Origin: Capsulimonas corticalis
GTDB taxonomy: Bacteria > Armatimonadota > Armatimonadia > Armatimonadales > Capsulimonadaceae
DNA length: 64,000 nt
Assembly: GCF_003574315.2 (NCBI RefSeq)
Contig: NZ_AP025739.1
Location: 1,612,001 to 1,676,000, forward strand
Direction: 5' to 3'
Numbering within the stretch: position 1 is the stretch's first letter; every line of letters starts with the position of its first letter. The position numbers were made by a program, and so were the translations under genes. Below the pieces are notes generated by a model. The model did not search any database, had not been told where the DNA came from, and saw only the letters and a list, made by a program, of their open reading frames with translations. Positions 13,464-23,726 of this stretch are shown one piece after another.

Positions 13464-16400
13464 ATGCGCGCGCTGAAGCATCGCTTGCTTGCTCTTTTCT
13501 TGCTGCTGTTCGTTTCCATCGCCTCACGCCCCGCTGCGGCGGTTGTGCCGGGAACGCCTACTCTTACCGCCGCTTCTTACACTTACACGCAGACTTTTCT
13601 GACGTGGACGGCGGTGTCCGGCAACCCGACCAGCTTTAACATCTACCGATCCACGACGCCGGGCGCGGAAGTGCTGGTGACCAATCTGTTCGCCGGCTCC
13701 ACGGTGGATTCCGGGCTTGCGTCCGGGACCGTGTACTACTATCAGATCACCGCCGTCAACGCCTCGGGAGAAAGTCCGCGATCGGCGGAGGTCAGCGCGG
13801 TGACGGGGCTGCCGGTCTCCCTTATTCGGGGCGGACATCAGGCCGTCACGGTATCGTGGACTCCGCCGGGGGGATCCAACGCCGCTGGTTATAATGTCTA
13901 TCGCGTCAAACAAATTGGCGGCGCCTACGCGAAGGTCAATGCGAGTCCGATCGCGGGCAGTTCGTATCTGGATACCGGCCTGGAAAATGGGACGCCCTAT
14001 TTTTATGAGGTGTCGGCGGTCAGCGCGGGCGGAACAGAATCGATCCGCAGCACGCCCTATCCGATTACTCCGAACGTACACGTCAACTGCGGCGGCAGCT
14101 CCGTCTATCCCGATTCCGTCGGCTTTTTCTGGGCGGCAAATACGGGCAGTTCGACGGGAACGAATATTTCCACGGCTGTACAACAGAATGGTTCTAGCGC
14201 CGCTCTCCCGAGTTCGGATCAGCCGCTTTACCAGAACCAGCTCCAGGAGGCGACTCCAGGGGCCGGCATTACGTACAATCTGCCGGTAACGACCGGCGCT
14301 TATACCCTTGTGCTTGGCTTCTCCGAAATCAGCGCCACCGCCGCCGGACAGCGCAAGTTCAACGTCACTGCCAATGGGCAGCAGATTCTGACAAACTACG
14401 ATATCTTTTCTACTGCGGGCGCCGCTAATAAGGTCGTCAGCACCGCCGCTCGGGTGAACGTGCAGTCCAGTGGGACACTGACACTGGTGTTTACCGGAAC
14501 GGTTGGCTCCGCTTGCGTGGCGACGATCTCACTCCAGCCGATCACCGCGCCGGCGGCCGACGCTCCCGAGCCTGGTTACGCGTCGCCCTCGGTCCCTCTG
14601 GATCGCGCCACTTCGGCGGACGGGGCGGGCCCTGCGTCGTCGTTCTTCGTGGTGGTTCCCTCGCTGGTCGCCGAGAACCATCCCGGCGTCGATATCGCCG
14701 CGTACAACCCCGTCGGACCCAGCGTCTCCTACGAGCGCAGCTACCGAAGCAACCTGACCACCCTTGGCTACTCCGCGCCGGGGCTGGGCGTGGGCTGGAC
14801 GGACAACTTTGACCTCAATATCACCAGCGCCAGCGCCAGCACGTGGGGACCGCTCACCCTCGTCTATGGAAATCAGGCCAAGGAGACCTTCACCCCCACC
14901 GTCACCGGCGGAACGGCCACGTTCACGCACCCGGCCGGCGCGCCTTATGTGGTAACGGGCGTTCCCTCGGGCACGGTCGGCCAGTGGACCTCGATCACGC
15001 TGACGTTCAAAGACCATACGCAAATGACGTTTACGCCCGCCGACCCGGCGGTCACCAACGTCAAGTATGTCTACAGCAAGCTCACCAATTTGGTCGGCCG
15101 CTTCGTCTCCATCAACCGCGACACTGCCGCCAACGGCAATCGCGTGCTCACGGTCACCAACGACGTTCCCACGACGCTGCTCCAGTTCAACTATACGGGC
15201 GCGCTGCTGGCGTCCGTGCAGGATCTGGCTTCGGCGACGCCCTCCGACAACCGGCAGGTCAACTACATCTTTGATGGAGGATCGCGGCTGGTCAAGGTCT
15301 CCGAGATCTTCACTGTGGGAGGGACCGTCGGAGCGGACCGCTGGCGTTACGGCTATCAGGCGGTGAACAACAAATCGTATCTGGGCGTCGTCGACGTTCC
15401 GGACCCGTCCCATCCAGGGGGGACTTCGTATTCTCGCGGCAAGCTCTTCTACGACCAGACCGGGGTCGTCTCGCTGACCACGGACGCAGCGGGCCGTCAG
15501 ACCTCCTACCTGCCCAACCCCAACGCGCAACTCGTGGTCGCAGTCAACTCCAACGCCGACGGCAGCCAGGCAATGAGCCACCGGCAGTATTACAGCAGTG
15601 GGCTAAACTTGAACGCGGGCTTTCAGGATGGCGGTGGCCAGAACGAGACGCTGTCCTACAGTGACGCGAACAACCCTCGCCTGCCCACCAGCGACATCAA
15701 TCGCAACGGTCAATCGACGGGCGTCACCTACAACGACGCCTTCGGCAACCCCGCGACGGTGAGGACACCGCGCGGAGTGGTGGTGACCAACACGTACGAC
15801 TTCACCAACTTCCCGCTGGGCCAAGTGACGAACTCGCAGGAGACCCACCAGACCGGTGGAACAACGGACGCGACGAAGCAGGCGACAAGCTACACCTACT
15901 ATGGTCCTTCCGATGGCGCGCTCAACGGGCTGGTCCACACGATCACCTCGCCGGCGCCGGACTCGACGGTCGCCCTGCCGTCGCTGGTGATGACCACGAT
16001 CACCTACACGCTGCCTTCCTCAACCTCGGCGGGCGGGCAGGTGCTGACGGTGGCGGAGCCGGGCAACAACGCGGGCGGGACGCTGACGACGACCTACAAC
16101 TACACCAGCGATCCCAGCTACGACGCGAACGGCGCTCCGGGCAGCTACAGTCAGAATGAGGTGATCGGCGAGCCTCTGACGGTGACGAACCCGGCAGGGA
16201 ACGTGACGCACTACCGTTACGACGGGCGCGGCAACGTCATTCTTTCCATCGATGCGATCGGCAACAAGACCAACTACGTCTACAACACCGCCGACCAGCT
16301 CGTGCAGACCATCGCTCCCGCCACCAACACGAGCACTCCCACGGCGCGGGCGTACACGCAGACCAACTACCAGTACCCGGGCGGTCCGGCGGCAAGCGAG

Positions 16401-18806
16401 CAGGTCTACGACGAGAGCGGCGCTCTGGTGCGAGAAGTGGACACGGCGTACACTGCGGACGGGGAAGTGGCGTCGGTGATGGGCAGCACGGAGCCGGTTT
16501 CGTACACCTACGACGGCCTCTCTCGCGTCTCGACGCTCAAGGACGGCAACAACCACGTCACGAACTACAGCTACGATCCGGTCGGCAACCTGGCCAAGAT
16601 CCAGTACCCAGGCGTCAGCGGCGTGTTCGATACGCTGACCTTCACCTACGACCACGACCAGAACCTCCAAACCAAGGTGGATGGCCGGGGGATCACCACG
16701 ACGTACGCGCGTGTCGACCCCGAGAGCCAGGTGACGGGAATCGCTTACTCGGGTCTTCCCGCAACGGTAACGCCGATCGGGACGACGAGCTTTGCGTATG
16801 ACGTATACGGGCGCCTGTCGTTAATGACGGACAACACAGGTACGACGGGCTACTCGAACTACGACGACCTGGACGAGCCCCTGCTGATGACGCGCAGCTT
16901 CACGGGCGGTCCCCAGAACCAGCAGATCTCGTACGCGCACTACCCGGACGGCAGCCGCAAGACGCTGACGACGCCAGTGGGCGTGACGAACCCTCTGACG
17001 GGGATCAACAGCGGGAACTTCACCTACAGTTACGACTTGGCGGGCCGGCTGACACAGCAGAAAGTCCCCTTCACTTTCTACAACATTAACCTGACCCAAG
17101 GCGACTTCCTGACGCATCAATGGAACGCGAACGGCTGGCTCAAGCGCACCGACAACTTGCTGACTGCTCCCGATGAGTATGCTTCCACGCGAACGAACTA
17201 CACTTACAATGCGCGCGGCTTTATTACGGCTCTCACCAACTATCAATACGACCCCGCCAATAACCTGCTGAGTAACATCGCCACATTTAACAACTTGACC
17301 TACGACGCCGTTGGAAATCGCCTTTCGCAGTACACGAATATGTACGCGTTCGGCGCCGCCCCCGATGGCAGCCGCTCTCTGCGATTTGGCTACGATACGG
17401 CGCACGCTTCCGCCTTGCAGAACCGCGACGTTCTTGCCAGTGAAGCAAGTTCGCTGCACGGCGGCTCTGCTTCTGCGGCGTATAACGACGTTTACACAAA
17501 TAACTTCCTGTACGATGGGGCGTACAGCATTACCCAATTCGCGATGGGCGGCGCGACGCAGGCGTTCGGGAATACGGTCGATAACCAGATCAGCAATTCA
17601 GGCTACCTGCCGGACGGCAACGGGAACATGACGACCTATCAAGGCGCGGCGTTCTCCTACGATCCCGAAGACCGTCTAACAGCGATTAGCAGCCCCATGT
17701 TCTCGGCCACTTACGACGGCAACGGCCTTCGAGCGACGAAGACTGCCGGGGGAGCGACGACCTACTTCCTGTACGACGGGGGCGCTCCTTTGCTGGAGGA
17801 GACCTTCAGCGGCTCGAACGCGACGATCTCTGCGGTGAACGTATGGGCTGCGGACGGCTGGCGCGGTCGGTACTATCCGACGGCCCCTGTCCCGTTCTAC
17901 TCAGCATACAACTTCGACCCCCAAGGAAACATCATCACCCGGCAGTTGACCAACAACACTGCCACCCGCACCTACGACTTCGCCTCTTACGAAGCGTACG
18001 GCAAGCGAACCGCCGACTTCCAGGACGACAACGGCGCCAACCCGGCGGCGTTGCAAGAGCCAGCTGGCTACGGTGGCCAGTACGGCTACTACACGGACCG
18101 TGAGACGGGCCTGTTGTGCCTGACGCACCGCTACTACGATCCGGGCACGGGCCGGTTCATCAACCGGGACCCGATCGGCTACCAGGGCGGCGTGAACCTG
18201 TACGGGTACGCGGGCGGCAATCCGGTGAACGAGAGCGATCCGAGTGGGTATGATTATGATAAATCGCTTGGAGATATGTTTGCGAGTTGGGATCGAGCTG
18301 CAGGTAATCTTGCAGATCGTGTCAATAATTCGTCTTCCGTACGATTTGTACATAGTACAGTCCACGCAGTTAAGAAAGCTTATATAGATTTCGCGACGCT
18401 CTATGGAAAAAGCCAGCAAGACTATGTGGTTTCCACGCTTGTTTGGTATTCAAAACCAGGCGCTTTTGATCCGCCAGCTCGACGTAATCGCGCCTCTGAA
18501 TATCCACATGGTAATTCAGACGAAATACGGGAAGAAGTTATAGCGAGACATACTGATGCTCAAGGCCGAGTTATTGATCCTGTAACCCAAGAAGAAATCC
18601 CTAAAGATCAAATTACTATTGATCACAAAGAACCTGTTGTTAAACATTGGAACCGTATAGGATACAATCAAACGGCGGCGCAACGCAGAGCCTGGTATAA
18701 TGATACTAACAACCTGACGGTTAAACCATGGAGCGAAAATTCTCGTTCTGGAGCGAGATTGCGTATAAAATATCGTCAAGATGTAGGTCCTAATTACACA
18801 CGTTGA
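13464..18806 (+). CDS. RHS-repeat polymorphic toxin with HNH-type nuclease tail
   Basis: A 1780-residue secreted protein. After a signal peptide (cleavage near RPAAA, residue 26) come two fibronectin-III-like domains (about 28-205), a malectin-like domain (about 205-365, VHVNCGGSS...), a long array of YD repeats, and the RHS core ending GLLCLTHRYYDPGTGRFINR, GYQGGVNLYGYAGG and NPVNESDPSG near 1590. Everything after that is AT-rich and unrelated to the orphan RHS: a linker, then an HNH/Endo VII-like domain with IDHKEPVVKHWN near 1718 and YNDTNNLTVKPWS and SGAR. The core normally forms a closed shell around the toxin, which is released by self-cleavage. The ATG has AAGGA about 10 bases upstream. 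The gene just downstream is probably its immunity gene. Confidence 0.9.
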   Translation: MRALKHRLLALFLLLFVSIASRPAAAVVPGTPTLTAASYTYTQTFLTWTAVSGNPTSFNIYRSTTPGAEVLVTNLFAGSTVDSGLASGTVYYYQITAVNASGESPRSAEVSAVTGLPVSLIRGGHQAVTVSWTPPGGSNAAGYNVYRVKQIGGAYAKVNASPIAGSSYLDTGLENGTPYFYEVSAVSAGGTESIRSTPYPITPNVHVNCGGSSVYPDSVGFFWAANTGSSTGTNISTAVQQNGSSAALPSSDQPLYQNQLQEATPGAGITYNLPVTTGAYTLVLGFSEISATAAGQRKFNVTANGQQILTNYDIFSTAGAANKVVSTAARVNVQSSGTLTLVFTGTVGSACVATISLQPITAPAADAPEPGYASPSVPLDRATSADGAGPASSFFVVVPSLVAENHPGVDIAAYNPVGPSVSYERSYRSNLTTLGYSAPGLGVGWTDNFDLNITSASASTWGPLTLVYGNQAKETFTPTVTGGTATFTHPAGAPYVVTGVPSGTVGQWTSITLTFKDHTQMTFTPADPAVTNVKYVYSKLTNLVGRFVSINRDTAANGNRVLTVTNDVPTTLLQFNYTGALLASVQDLASATPSDNRQVNYIFDGGSRLVKVSEIFTVGGTVGADRWRYGYQAVNNKSYLGVVDVPDPSHPGGTSYSRGKLFYDQTGVVSLTTDAAGRQTSYLPNPNAQLVVAVNSNADGSQAMSHRQYYSSGLNLNAGFQDGGGQNETLSYSDANNPRLPTSDINRNGQSTGVTYNDAFGNPATVRTPRGVVVTNTYDFTNFPLGQVTNSQETHQTGGTTDATKQATSYTYYGPSDGALNGLVHTITSPAPDSTVALPSLVMTTITYTLPSSTSAGGQVLTVAEPGNNAGGTLTTTYNYTSDPSYDANGAPGSYSQNEVIGEPLTVTNPAGNVTHYRYDGRGNVILSIDAIGNKTNYVYNTADQLVQTIAPATNTSTPTARAYTQTNYQYPGGPAASEQVYDESGALVREVDTAYTADGEVASVMGSTEPVSYTYDGLSRVSTLKDGNNHVTNYSYDPVGNLAKIQYPGVSGVFDTLTFTYDHDQNLQTKVDGRGITTTYARVDPESQVTGIAYSGLPATVTPIGTTSFAYDVYGRLSLMTDNTGTTGYSNYDDLDEPLLMTRSFTGGPQNQQISYAHYPDGSRKTLTTPVGVTNPLTGINSGNFTYSYDLAGRLTQQKVPFTFYNINLTQGDFLTHQWNANGWLKRTDNLLTAPDEYASTRTNYTYNARGFITALTNYQYDPANNLLSNIATFNNLTYDAVGNRLSQYTNMYAFGAAPDGSRSLRFGYDTAHASALQNRDVLASEASSLHGGSASAAYNDVYTNNFLYDGAYSITQFAMGGATQAFGNTVDNQISNSGYLPDGNGNMTTYQGAAFSYDPEDRLTAISSPMFSATYDGNGLRATKTAGGATTYFLYDGGAPLLEETFSGSNATISAVNVWAADGWRGRYYPTAPVPFYSAYNFDPQGNIITRQLTNNTATRTYDFASYEAYGKRTADFQDDNGANPAALQEPAGYGGQYGYYTDRETGLLCLTHRYYDPGTGRFINRDPIGYQGGVNLYGYAGGNPVNESDPSGYDYDKSLGDMFASWDRAAGNLADRVNNSSSVRFVHSTVHAVKKAYIDFATLYGKSQQDYVVSTLVWYSKPGAFDPPARRNRASEYPHGNSDEIREEVIARHTDAQGRVIDPVTQEEIPKDQITIDHKEPVVKHWNRIGYNQTAAQRRAWYNDTNNLTVKPWSENSRSGARLRIKYRQDVGPNYTR

Positions 18807-18817
18807 GGTAAATGATA

Positions 18818-19594
18818 ATGAGTAAAGGCTTGCCTCTAATTTCTGTATCCGAATTAGGCAGTAATGAGCTCAAAAATGCTGATTTTATAGAAGCGGCTTA
18901 CCAATTTGCTGTTTCTACACCATCGCATGTATTTACAGATATCCTTGCAGACGCATTTAACGATTATAACTATATCTTAGTAATATCGCGTGATATGTTC
19001 GATAAAGATCTAGCTAGCACTGTAATTCAATTTGTTAGAAAAAATAACACTATTCTTGATGTTAATAAACCATTGACGATTCTACCTGGGTTGCAACATC
19101 CATCTTATGGTTTTGATACAATATTCTTGATCAATTGTGAAGTGCACGGTCTCTTCAAGGGCGATAATATGGACGTGTACCTTCGCACAATACAGGCTAT
19201 CCCTGCCTATCATTGCGAGTTTAATAGTAATGACGATATCGAGTTAGTAAGATACGTACGAAGCAGATTTGTGTCGACATTGGATTGGAAGCGTTCCCCT
19301 GCGCCACGTGTTTGGTTTAAATTTAATAATAAAATAACCAACAGCATTGGTAAAAAAATGGGGATTACTTCTATAGATCATGCTCTTCAAGAAGTTTTAC
19401 GCATCGCTGAGTATAAGACCGGATGGGCTGAATTCAAAAACTATCTTGATGAGCACATTAGATTGGACTACGAAGGTAATTCCTATCTTATAAGTATTCC
19501 TGCAAGGCAACCTATCAGTTTGCCTGAAGATGAAATCACAAGTTGGATAACCAGCTATCTTATTGACGGTTTAGAACAGGTGTTGTCTACCTAA
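18818..19594 (+). CDS. Probable immunity protein for the HNH RHS tail
   Basis: A 258-residue cytoplasmic protein without a recognised domain. It starts 11 bp after the RHS stop; the GAGG at 18805-18808 has correct spacing to the ATG at 18818 but not to the in-frame ATG at 18812. It shares the low GC of the toxin tail and is placed exactly where RHS immunity genes lie. The role is therefore inferred from position and base composition, not from homology. Confidence 0.65.
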   Translation: MSKGLPLISVSELGSNELKNADFIEAAYQFAVSTPSHVFTDILADAFNDYNYILVISRDMFDKDLASTVIQFVRKNNTILDVNKPLTILPGLQHPSYGFDTIFLINCEVHGLFKGDNMDVYLRTIQAIPAYHCEFNSNDDIELVRYVRSRFVSTLDWKRSPAPRVWFKFNNKITNSIGKKMGITSIDHALQEVLRIAEYKTGWAEFKNYLDEHIRLDYEGNSYLISIPARQPISLPEDEITSWITSYLIDGLEQVLST

Positions 19595-19994: not shown

Positions 19995-22526
19995 ATGTTC
20001 CGAGCCTACACGCGCACCGATTATCAATACCCCGGCGGACCCGTCTCGCGCACCGGCCTGTATCCCGAAGCCGACCCCACGACGATCCCGGTGGTCGGCG
20101 CGACGCCGTTCCGCTACACCGACTATACCTACACGGCGGACGGCGAAACCGCGTCGGTGGCGGGGACCGTGGAGCCGGCGTCGTATACCTACGACGGCCT
20201 GTCCCGCGTCGTGACGCTCAAGGACGGCAACAACCACGTCACCAACTACAGCTACGACCCGGCGGGCAATCTCGCCCAGATCCAGTACCCGGGCGCCAGC
20301 GGCGTCTTCGACACCCTGACCTTCGCCTACGACGGAGACCAGAACCTGACGTCTCGCACGGATGGCCGAGGCTTCGTGACGACCTACAACCGCTCCTCCG
20401 TGGACAACCGCGTGGACTCGGTGACGTACTCTTCCGACGCCTCGCTCAACGTCTCGTATTCCTACGATGCGCTTTCGCGGATGATCGGGATGTCGAGCAC
20501 GGCGGCGGCGCACACGTACACACTCGACAACCTGGGGCTGCCGATGACGCACACGACCAGCTTCACCGGCGGTCCGCAGAACCAGACGCTGACCTACGCC
20601 TACAACCCCGACGGCAGCCGGACCACGCTCCAGACGCCAAGCTTCGGGACGGGCGGCTCGTACAACTACCAGTACAACGGCGTGGGGGATCTGACGCGGG
20701 CGGGCTTCCCGTGGACGGGCGGCTCGGTCAACCACGTCTACCAGACGGTGACGGGCTCCAGCCCGCTGGTGACGAGCGGCCGGCTGTCCCAGAGCCGCAG
20801 CGCGCGGGGCACGACCAACTACACCTACGACCCGCGCGGCTTCCTGGGGACGCTCTCGAACCTGTGGAAGGACTACCCGGACAACCCCGTCTCCAACGCG
20901 CCCGGCTCGCTGTACGGGGGCTCTCGCAGCGGGGCGTCCCTGACCTCGGACATGACGTACGACACGGGCGGGAACCGTCTGGTGGAGGACTCTTATGTCC
21001 TGAGCGCGCAGGGCGTGATCCCGTACCTTCACGACGGGAGCCGCACGCGCACGTTCACCTACGACAGCCGGGACCGTCTGACGCATGAGAACAGCCTTTA
21101 CACAGGCTCGGTGGGCACGGACTACCTGCACGCCGGCTACGACTGGTCGTTCTCGTACGACAACGCGGACAACCCTTTGACGATGCGCGGGGCGTCGCTG
21201 GCGTCTCCCAACTCCGACAACCAGTTCTTCGACGGCGGGGCGAATTACGTGTACGATGGGAACGGGAACCCGACGAAGTACATGGGCGTCTCCGGTCTGA
21301 CGTTCGACGCCGAAGACCGTTTGACCGCGATCCCCAGCCCGACATTCTCGGCGACCTACGGCCCCGACGGCCTCCGGGTCAAGAAGAGCACGAGCCTCGG
21401 GGACCGTTACTTCCTCTACGACGGCGACCAGCTTCTCCTGGAAGAAGACAGCGCCGGCGCCATCAAGTCCGCCTTTGGCTGGGCGGCTGACGGCCTTCGG
21501 GCTCAGTACATCCCCGGGGATCAGTACTACCTTTACGAGTACGATCCTTCGGGCAACCTCGTGCAGGTGCAGTCGGCGACCAACAGCGCGGCCCGCTTTC
21601 TGAACACAAGCCTGTACGACGCTTACGGCAACGTTCGCAACTCGCTGGGGGACACAAACGGCGTCTCCTCCTCGGCGCTGGCGGTGATCGGCTTCGGCGG
21701 TCAGTACGGCTACTACACGGACAACGACCGTGGCGGGAACGCCTCGTACAACACGGGCCTATTGCTGCTGACGCACCGGTACTACGACCCCCGGACGGGG
21801 CGGTTCATCAACCGGGACCCGATCGGCTACCAGGGCGGCGTGAACCTGTACGGGTTTGCGGGCGGCAATCCGGTCAACGAGAGCGATCCGAGTGGGACAT
21901 CTAGCAAAAACTCCATAGGTGATTGGCTAGACGGCAAAGTAGGTGGGGCCGTCACAAAAGCTGGATACGATTGGGAAATGTATGTGGAAGGTAAAACAAG
22001 TGAGGCACAAGCATACCAATCAATAAACAACGCTACCGATCAATTTACATTGCTAACACTGACTATCGCTAGCGAGGGCTTAACTGCGGACGGTGAAGCT
22101 CTAAATTTAGCAGCTATGAAAGCTGAAAATCGGACAGTTGCCGCCGCCGTATCATTTACGGGGGACGATCTTCTACTAGCGCGATATGGTAGTCGCGTCC
22201 CGCCATTAAAAGGTTATTTTGATGTGGTCGTTCATGGCACACCGAATTCGTTCGAGTTATTGTCAAACACGAAGTGGATCCCGATAGACCAACGGGCGCT
22301 GGCAACTATTATATCAAAATCTGGATATAAGGGAGGTCCGGTCCGATTAATCTCATGTTCTACCGGCGCTCTTACCAATGGTATAGCAAAGAATTTGGCA
22401 AATAAGCTTGGTGCCGAAGTAATCGCTCCCGATATGACGGTTTATGTACATGGGACAGGTAAATTAACAATCGGATCTGTATCTAAGTATGTGGGTAAAT
22501 GGGTACACTTCTACCCTGGAAAATAA
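19995..22526 (+). CDS. Orphan RHS cassette: truncated core with cysteine-protease-like tail
   Basis: An 843-residue frame that begins abruptly inside the YD-repeat region (RAYTRTDYQYPGGP matches RAYTQTNYQYPGGP inside the full-length RHS) and lacks signal peptide, FN3 and malectin domains. It runs through a complete RHS core (LLLLTHRYYDPRTGRFINR, NLYGFAGGNPVNESDPSG near 628) and then switches to AT-rich DNA encoding an unrelated 210-residue tail. The tail contains FDVVVHGTPN (His near 745) and VRLISCSTG (Cys near 786) followed by NLANKLGAEVIAPD, a His/Cys arrangement like caspase-fold or C80-type peptidases. There is no convincing RBS, so this is probably a silent donor cassette that needs recombination with a full-length gene to be expressed. 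Confidence 0.75.
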   Translation: MFRAYTRTDYQYPGGPVSRTGLYPEADPTTIPVVGATPFRYTDYTYTADGETASVAGTVEPASYTYDGLSRVVTLKDGNNHVTNYSYDPAGNLAQIQYPGASGVFDTLTFAYDGDQNLTSRTDGRGFVTTYNRSSVDNRVDSVTYSSDASLNVSYSYDALSRMIGMSSTAAAHTYTLDNLGLPMTHTTSFTGGPQNQTLTYAYNPDGSRTTLQTPSFGTGGSYNYQYNGVGDLTRAGFPWTGGSVNHVYQTVTGSSPLVTSGRLSQSRSARGTTNYTYDPRGFLGTLSNLWKDYPDNPVSNAPGSLYGGSRSGASLTSDMTYDTGGNRLVEDSYVLSAQGVIPYLHDGSRTRTFTYDSRDRLTHENSLYTGSVGTDYLHAGYDWSFSYDNADNPLTMRGASLASPNSDNQFFDGGANYVYDGNGNPTKYMGVSGLTFDAEDRLTAIPSPTFSATYGPDGLRVKKSTSLGDRYFLYDGDQLLLEEDSAGAIKSAFGWAADGLRAQYIPGDQYYLYEYDPSGNLVQVQSATNSAARFLNTSLYDAYGNVRNSLGDTNGVSSSALAVIGFGGQYGYYTDNDRGGNASYNTGLLLLTHRYYDPRTGRFINRDPIGYQGGVNLYGFAGGNPVNESDPSGTSSKNSIGDWLDGKVGGAVTKAGYDWEMYVEGKTSEAQAYQSINNATDQFTLLTLTIASEGLTADGEALNLAAMKAENRTVAAAVSFTGDDLLLARYGSRVPPLKGYFDVVVHGTPNSFELLSNTKWIPIDQRALATIISKSGYKGGPVRLISCSTGALTNGIAKNLANKLGAEVIAPDMTVYVHGTGKLTIGSVSKYVGKWVHFYPGK

Positions 22527-22528
22527 AG

Positions 22529-22671
22529 TTACTGGTCTAAACCCAATGAAGTAGCGAACAAGCACCAGGATAGCATTTGGGTTGCTCAGCTTCGCTGAGA
22601 TGGCGAAGGTATAGAACACTTAGAAATCCTACCGGCGCCTGTTCGCTACTGTGTGGAATTTAGACCAGTAA
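22529..22671. repeat. 143-bp MITE-like inverted-repeat element
   Basis: The ends are exact inverted copies: TTACTGGTCTAAA (22529-22541) and TTTAGACCAGTAA (22659-22671). After 8 unmatched bases a second matched block follows (AGTAGCGAAC against GTTCGCTACT). The 80-bp centre has a small hairpin (CTCAGC/GCTGAG) and no coding capacity. No clear target duplication is visible. It starts 2 bp after the orphan RHS stop, so it may also act as its terminator. Confidence 0.65.
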
Positions 22672-22716: not shown

Positions 22717-23082
22717 GTGAAGTTAAAAAGTGTTATGTTCAGTGAATTCGAAGATAATGATTCGTCGAATTCTAGCATTGCAAAATTTATTTCTACTGAA
22801 GAGATGCTTAATGAAATTGACATTGTCAATTATCTTGAAAATGGAATACCATTAATTGTTTGTCCTGGGCCTGCTAGCGATTTGATTGAGCCGAAAAATG
22901 GCATTATAGGCACTCGTCACATTTTAACTGATGGAGTATGGATGTGGAGAAGCGATCTTCAATACTATGTTAGGAAATACCATTTAGTTTTGCCTGCTGA
23001 GTTTATTCAGCACATGTATGAGCAAGAATGGATTCCTCCACTAGAAAACGAAATTGATTTTGAAAACTTAGATTATAGTTAA
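22717..23082 (+). CDS. Probable immunity protein for the orphan RHS tail
   Basis: A 121-residue acidic cytoplasmic protein, AT-rich, with a GTG start at 22717 (an in-frame ATG at 22735 is also possible). No family recognised. Its position after the orphan RHS tail, separated only by the inverted-repeat element, suggests the cognate immunity gene. Confidence 0.55.
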   Translation: MKLKSVMFSEFEDNDSSNSSIAKFISTEEMLNEIDIVNYLENGIPLIVCPGPASDLIEPKNGIIGTRHILTDGVWMWRSDLQYYVRKYHLVLPAEFIQHMYEQEWIPPLENEIDFENLDYS

Positions 23083-23148
23083 GTAATTGAACAAAAGAAT
23101 CTCAGGTCGCTTGCTTGCACTCTCTGGTGTATGTCGTACAATAGTGGC

Positions 23149-23367
23149 ATGAAATTCGTTTCTCCTCTTTCGGAGGCTGATCAGACCGATCTCACAGCCG
23201 TGTATCGCAACGGCCCTTCTCATCGCCAGCATCAACGCGCTCAAGCCGTACTCCTGAGCGCCCAGGGATATACGCTCGATCAGCTCTCCCAGATCGTGCA
23301 AACCGATCCCGCCACCATCAGCCGATGGCTCGATCAGTGGCAAGAATATCGAATTTCTTTTGCGTAG
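23149..23367 (+). pseudogene. IS630-type transposase N-terminal remnant
   Basis: About 70 residues beginning MKFVSPLSEADQTDL, with an HTH region typical of IS630/Tc1-like transposases (HRQHQRAQAVLLSAQG, LSQIVQTDPATISRWLDQW). The catalytic DDE domain is missing; the frame runs into unrelated sequence (EYRISFA) and stops. GC content returns to the genomic average only over this piece. Confidence 0.65.
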
Positions 23368-23439: not shown

Positions 23440-23726
23440 TTTCGCTGGTGATCGACCAGCGCCCCTCGGATGGCGTGACGAAGCACTGCGATCTTGTCGG
23501 CTTCTCCGGCCAGTGGGGCGGTTACACGGATTGGGAGATCAACGCGTCGTCGGGCGGCTCGATCCCCAACCCGGTCCTGATGACGCACCGGTACTACGAT
23601 TCCCGGACGGGGCGGTTCATCAACCCGGGCCCGATCAGACGCTATGGTAGCTTGTATCTGTGGATGTTTCCGGTAGCGCGCAGGCTTGGTATGAGAAATG
23701 TCTTGAGTTTTTGTTGTGGTGAATGA
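23440..23726 (+). pseudogene. Third RHS core remnant
   Basis: The frame contains LVGFSGQWGGYTDWE, LMTHRYYDSRTGRFIN and then PGPIRRYGSLYLW, clearly decayed from the GFGGQYGYYTD, LLTHRYYDPRTGRFINRDPIGYQGG and NLYGF of the other two RHS genes. About 65 residues of the core are left; the rest is lost, and the frame ends at a stop at 23726. Confidence 0.75.

What the first reader, a model, noticed from the sequence alone, without database searches (positions are those of the whole stretch)
19995..22526. Orphan RHS cassette with a His/Cys protease-like tail
The cassette starts inside the YD repeats and has a full core, so homologous recombination with the upstream RHS gene would swap its tail into an expressed protein. 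The tail's VVHG and LISCSTG segments about 40 residues apart resemble caspase-fold or C80-type cysteine peptidases. A secreted RHS protease of this type would be noteworthy.
Basis: partly seen in the sequence, partly recalled or inferred. Interest (0 to 1): 0.6.

Follow-up and report, generated by a model that had tools for sequence, protein, structure and literature searches.

The report
Orphan RHS toxin with caspase-like protease
A silent, headless toxin gene next to a secreted RHS toxin ends in a predicted caspase-like protein-cutting domain, paired with its own protective gene, and relatives of this pair turn up across many bacteria, including laboratory E. coli.

Summary
Window 19995-22526 is an 843-codon RHS fragment with no N-terminal part. 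It carries YD repeats, an RHS core, and from 21897 an unrelated tail with VVHG and LISCSTG 41 residues apart.

The protease reading is well supported. In 67 aligned relatives His747, Gly748 and Cys788 are invariant. AlphaFold2 models tail residues 90-209 with pLDDT mostly above 90. The best solved folds are C80 cysteine protease domains (Z 10.4), then other clan CD peptidases. One relative passes Pfam's C80 cut-off; the window tail does not.

The tail sits at the extreme C-terminus in nearly all relatives, on RHS, CDI and T7SS-type carriers. Of 82 other loci, 74 carry a gene of one of two immunity families next to the domain. A distant relative ends the orphan after yibA in the E. coli rhsA locus.

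Recombination with the upstream gene is possible but weaker than claimed: 45% amino-acid identity overall, longest shared DNA 55 bp. The orphan has no visible translation start signal.

New member of a known kind (orphan RHS cassette, predicted Tox-Caspase toxin). Proteolysis, toxicity, substrate and expression are untested.

The parts
13464..18806 (+). Main RHS gene (1780 aa): signal-peptide-like N-terminus, two fn3, malectin, YD repeats, RHS core, GH-E (HNH/EndoVII) nuclease tail from about 18249
   Evidence: the signal peptide is read from the sequence, not computed
18812..19594 (+). Probable immunity gene of the main gene's nuclease tail (260 aa); no family match
   Evidence: position and low G+C (0.37); inference
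19995..21896 (+). Orphan RHS fragment: YD repeats and RHS core, homologous to residues 962-1606 of the main protein; ends at the DPSG boundary
21897..22526 (+). Orphan tail (209 aa): poorly modelled linker (residues 1-83), then a caspase-fold domain (about residues 90-209)
22233..22235 (+). Predicted catalytic His747 codon (tail residue 113, VVHG)
   Evidence: invariant in 67 of 67 sequences
22356..22358 (+). Predicted catalytic Cys788 codon (tail residue 154, LISCSTG)
   Evidence: invariant in 67 of 67 sequences
22529..22671 (.). Element with 38-nt terminal inverted repeats (79% complementary, outer ends TTACTGG/CCAGTAA), inserted between toxin stop and immunity gene; single copy in the genome
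22717..23082 (+). Cognate immunity gene (121 aa, GTG start), immunity family A
   Evidence: homologues next to the tail domain in 34 other loci
23448..23640 (+). Remnant of a third RHS core end (LMTHRYYDSRTGRFIN), no tail

Best explanation
This is a displaced (orphan) RHS toxin-immunity cassette. Its tail is a C-terminal polymorphic toxin domain of caspase (clan CD) fold, closest to C80 peptidases. It most likely works as a cysteine peptidase: His747 activates Cys788, which cuts one or a few proteins inside a competing bacterial cell. The 121-aa protein from 22717-23082 binds the domain and protects the producer. The gene has no signal peptide, no N-terminal carrier part and no evident translation start signal, so it is probably silent. 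It would act only after its 3' end is joined to an expressed RHS gene by recombination in the core, as shown for a Salmonella orphan. Shown here: the ORF, the conserved His/Cys, the predicted fold, the C-terminal position and the conserved toxin-immunity pairing. Inferred: proteolysis, toxicity, the cellular target, silence and recombination.
For: His, Gly, Cys invariant in 67/67 sequences. Model pLDDT mostly above 90 over residues 90-209. Structure matches: V. cholerae RTX cysteine protease domain Z 10.4, rmsd 2.6 over 114; C. difficile toxin protease domains Z 8.6; SAVED-CHAT 7.2; then C11, legumain, gingipain, caspases Z 4-5. Relative L070 passes Pfam Peptidase_C80 (26.2 bits, cut-off 23.8). 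Domain ends within 6 residues of the stop in 75 of 87 ORFs. Carriers include RHS, FHA/PT-VENN, PT-HINT, WXG/T7SS. Immunity family A in 34 and family B in 40 of 82 other loci, never both. Toxin and immunity distances correlate (r 0.78, permutation p 1e-4, 26 pairs). Orphan precedent: PMC3967940. Validated papain-fold antibacterial protease toxin with immunity protein: PMC12136450.
Against: The window tail itself hits no Pfam family and only a chance-level NCBIfam model, and Foldseek alone gives only borderline E-values (best 1.3e-3). No experiment on any member of this family was found. A shared fold does not prove proteolysis. Identity to the main gene is low for frequent recombination.
Confidence: 0.72

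Rival explanations
1. The domain is a releasing (self-processing) peptidase, like C80 domains inside RTX and clostridial toxins, and not itself the toxin.
For: The closest solved folds are self-processing domains, and most caspase-like domains in polymorphic toxins were read as releasing peptidases (PMC3482391).
Against: It is the last domain, with nothing behind it to release, it is also found as short free-standing proteins, and it has an immunity-type gene beside it in about 90% of loci. RHS proteins have their own core cleavage (established knowledge).
Confidence: 0.1
2. The orphan is expressed at a low level inside the cell and acts as a toxin-antitoxin-like pair, not as a delivered weapon.
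For: An orphan rhs in Salmonella has been described as acting as a toxin-antitoxin module (PMC7043789, abstract seen). Toxin and immunity reading frames are both intact here.
Against: No in-frame start upstream of ATG 19995, no Shine-Dalgarno-like sequence before it, and only one weak promoter-like match on this strand.
Confidence: 0.15
3. The cassette is dead: a displaced gene on its way to decay, with the immunity gene cut off by an inserted element.
For: An inverted-repeat element separates toxin and immunity gene (190 nt, against -41 to +48 elsewhere). A third core next door is already degraded.
Against: 843 codons open, catalytic residues and immunity gene intact.
Confidence: 0.3
4. The fold is caspase-like but the chemistry is not proteolysis (for example another thiol reaction, or binding only).
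For: No member has been assayed as far as the papers searched show, and a fold match does not show function.
Against: The His and Cys are invariant, in the clan CD order and context.
Confidence: 0.15

Closest known systems
Tox-Caspase (Zhang et al. 2012, PMC3482391)
   Same: Caspase-like fold with conserved H and C, C-terminal position in polymorphic toxins, RHS and T7SS carriers, immunity genes
   Different: The immunity families listed there (Imm36, Imm57) are not the two found here; whether their alignment contains this family could not be checked
Peptidase C80 (RTX and large clostridial toxin cysteine protease domains)
   Same: Best structural match (Z 8.5-10.4), same His-then-Cys order; one relative above the Pfam cut-off
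   Different: C80 domains are internal self-processing domains activated by inositol hexakisphosphate (established knowledge); here the domain is terminal and has an immunity protein
Orphan rhs-CT/rhsI modules (Salmonella, PMC3967940; E. coli rhsA locus orphan after yibA)
   Same: Headless rhs fragment plus immunity gene downstream of a main rhs/immunity pair; the E. coli rhsA orphan even ends in a distant relative of this tail
   Different: Longer orphan (634 codons of core and repeats), lower identity to the main gene, an inserted element before the immunity gene
Cpe1/Cpi1 (PMC12136450)
   Same: Antibacterial cysteine protease toxin with immunity protein, on T6SS and CDI carriers
   Different: Papain fold with a Cys-His-Asp triad, and validated; here caspase fold and untested

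Membership tests
Orphan RHS toxin/immunity cassette | 3' fragment of an rhs gene downstream of a full rhs/immunity pair, without secretion signal | tested here: met
Orphan RHS toxin/immunity cassette | Unrelated tail after the conserved core boundary, linked to an immunity gene | tested here: met
Orphan RHS toxin/immunity cassette | Recombination with the main gene yields an expressed fusion | not testable with these tools
   only shared DNA measured: 55-bp longest exact stretch
Caspase-like (clan CD) peptidase | His-Gly after one core strand and Cys after the next, in that order | tested here: met
   strands 108-111 then H113; 149-152 then C154
Caspase-like (clan CD) peptidase | Caspase fold | tested here: met
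   predicted model; top matches all clan CD
Caspase-like (clan CD) peptidase | Cys-dependent proteolysis | not testable with these tools
   needs a biochemical assay
Peptidase C80 | Window sequence matches the Pfam C80 profile above its cut-off | tested here: not met
   no hit for the window tail; relative L070 passes
Peptidase C80 | Activation by inositol hexakisphosphate and self-cleavage | not testable with these tools
   biochemical
Tox-Caspase (PMC3482391) | C-terminal-most caspase-like domain in a polymorphic toxin with H and C | tested here: met
Tox-Caspase (PMC3482391) | Listed immunity partners Imm36 or Imm57 (not strictly defining) | tested here: not met
   no Pfam immunity family found for family A

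The most novel reading that the evidence does not exclude
A widespread caspase-fold antibacterial protease family cuts a specific bacterial protein and is neutralised by two unrelated immunity families. In one clade the immunity protein is a zinc ribbon joined to a domain like the ribosomal L7/L12 C-terminus, possibly a mimic of the substrate.
Probability: 0.1. Interest if true: 0.72.

Novelty: new member of a known kind. Interest (0 to 1): 0.45.

Why it matters
In the papers searched I found no experimentally tested caspase-fold antibacterial toxin. This family is coherent, widespread and paired with immunity genes. It includes a distant relative in the rhsA locus of laboratory E. coli, present in 3,485 of 5,426 complete E. 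coli genomes. A simple expression test could turn a 2012 prediction into a known activity, and might give the E. coli rhsA orphan a function.

Tried and rejected
Direct Pfam, NCBIfam and PHROGs scans of the tail found nothing useful, nor did a sequence search of PDB chains. A viral-contig scan found no confirmed relative. Searches of 60 relatives and of 200 genomes of the phylum found no close relative. A first alignment was too diverse for the genome-collection scan and was replaced by a closer one. Immunity family A has a confident model (pLDDT 93) but no Foldseek match in PDB below E 7; this is inconclusive and does not show a new fold. The inverted-repeat element has no other copy in the genome, so calling it a MITE is unproven.

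Full report
OBSERVATION. The window holds a full RHS gene (13464-18806, 1780 aa) with fn3 and malectin domains, YD repeats, an RHS core and a GH-E nuclease tail. It is followed by a probable immunity gene (18812-19594) and then the reported ORF 19995-22526 (843 aa). That ORF has RHS repeats and the RHS core domain, and aligns to residues 962-1606 of the main protein at 45% identity. It therefore lacks everything N-terminal. No in-frame start lies upstream of its ATG and no Shine-Dalgarno-like sequence precedes it. The tail starts in frame at 21897, not 21898. G+C falls from 0.66 in the core to 0.45 in the tail and 0.34 in the next gene.

RELATIVES. The tail matches no Pfam family by itself, and only a chance-level NCBIfam model. 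tblastn against plasmids found relatives in Rhizobium, Streptomyces, Rhodococcus and E. coli. A genome-collection scan added 73 loci from Pseudomonadota, Bacillota, Actinomycetota, Verrucomicrobiota, Planctomycetota and a Leptospirales genome. In 67 aligned domains His747, Gly748, Leu785, Cys788, Gly791, Ala798, Val809 and Pro812 are invariant. The domain ends within six residues of the stop in 75 of 87 ORFs. Its carriers include RHS proteins, FHA/PT-VENN proteins, an RHS protein with PT-HINT and a WXG/T7SS-like protein. Many Clostridia have it as a short free-standing protein.

FOLD. AlphaFold2 on 57 sequences models residues 90-209 of the tail with pLDDT mostly above 90; residues 1-83 are mostly below 50. 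His113 and Cys154 (tail numbering) follow two strands, as in clan CD peptidases. The structural second look ranks C80 cysteine protease domains first: V. cholerae RTX Z 10.4, rmsd 2.6 over 114 residues; V. vulnificus MARTX 10.2; C. difficile toxin domains 8.6. SAVED-CHAT (7.2) follows, then C11, legumain, gingipain and caspases at Z 4-5. Foldseek alone gives weak E-values but the same families on top. Independently, relative L070 scores 26.2 bits against Pfam C80 (cut-off 23.8). The His-Cys distance itself could not be measured.

IMMUNITY. The gene 22717-23082 (121 aa) is homologous to genes next to the domain in the Rhizobium, Streptomyces and Rhodococcus loci. In all, 34 other loci carry this family (A) beside the domain. 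Forty carry a second, unrelated family (B): a zinc ribbon plus a region weakly like the ribosomal L7/L12 C-terminal domain (best E 3e-4, below Pfam's cut-off). None of the 82 loci has both, and toxins with family B fall in one clade (support 0.990). The counts 34, 40 and 82 leave out three records of the window's own locus that are included in the totals printed. Distances within family A and its toxins correlate (r 0.78, permutation p 1e-4, 26 pairs), although shared host ancestry may add to this. The spacing between toxin and immunity gene is -41 to +48 nt elsewhere but 190 nt here. The difference is an element of about 143 bp with 38-nt inverted ends that begins 2 nt after the toxin stop. 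It is single-copy in this genome.

E. COLI. DNA of the E. coli relative occurs in 3,485 of 5,426 complete E. coli genomes, in all cases on the chromosome. In JM109 it is the headless rhs fragment between yibA and yibG, downstream of rhsA; from memory this gene is yibJ. The order (main rhs, immunity, orphan with this kind of tail, immunity, further rhs remnant) mirrors the window. The similarity is distant (tblastn E 7e-4; profile E 2e-9).

RECOMBINATION. Main and orphan share 144 bp at 91% immediately before the tail, with a 55-bp exact stretch, and 218 bp at 84% further upstream. Both run up to the same GATCCGAGTGGG boundary in the same frame. No other RHS gene in the genome matches the orphan core better. 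In Salmonella the shown case had 522 bp at 95% (PMC3967940). Recombination is possible but should be rarer. It would also remove the main gene's own immunity gene unless the locus is first duplicated, as the Salmonella authors argued.

WHAT IS KNOWN. Caspase-like C-terminal toxins on RHS and T7SS proteins were predicted in 2012 as Tox-Caspase (PMC3482391). A papain-fold antibacterial protease toxin with immunity protein has been validated (PMC12136450). No tested caspase-fold antibacterial toxin was found in the papers searched. The window cassette is therefore a new member of a known kind. Its value lies in defining a coherent, testable toxin-immunity family.

LIMITS. Nothing here shows toxicity, proteolysis, expression or recombination. 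The species of origin was not identified.

Noticed in passing
L016, L018, L020-L029, L039 and others: Free-standing versions of the toxin in Clostridia share a short N-terminal leader such as MGAGYHGGFGNTYGS or MSKGYSGLFHGTIGS (34 of 60 short ORFs), followed directly by the toxin domain; its role is unknown.
   Followed up: partly
window 22529-22671: About 143-bp element with 38-nt inverted ends (TTACTGG...CCAGTAA) that begins 2 nt after the toxin stop; one copy in the genome. An IS630-like HTH fragment lies nearby at 23131-23367.
   Followed up: partly
L030, L031, L044, L045, L061 and others, gene after the toxin: Immunity family B: zinc ribbon plus an L7/L12-C-terminus-like region (PF00542, E 3e-4 in L056, below cut-off), possibly a substrate mimic.
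   Followed up: partly
window 22717-23082: Immunity family A has a confident model (pLDDT 93) but no meaningful Foldseek match among solved structures.
   Followed up: partly
genome C1 around 1695077-1697752, outside the window: An open frame of 7707 aa with RHS repeats lies about 20 kb downstream of the window; several further RHS genes lie elsewhere in the genome.
   Followed up: no
L017 1-1536 and 2717-3937: Two copies of the toxin with their own family A immunity genes in tandem in a Lachnospiraceae contig.
   Followed up: no
BFVD A0A8S5P2H5: A siphovirus minor capsid protein fragment matches the tail model (E 1.3e-7), which suggests a phage MuF-type carrier.
   Followed up: no
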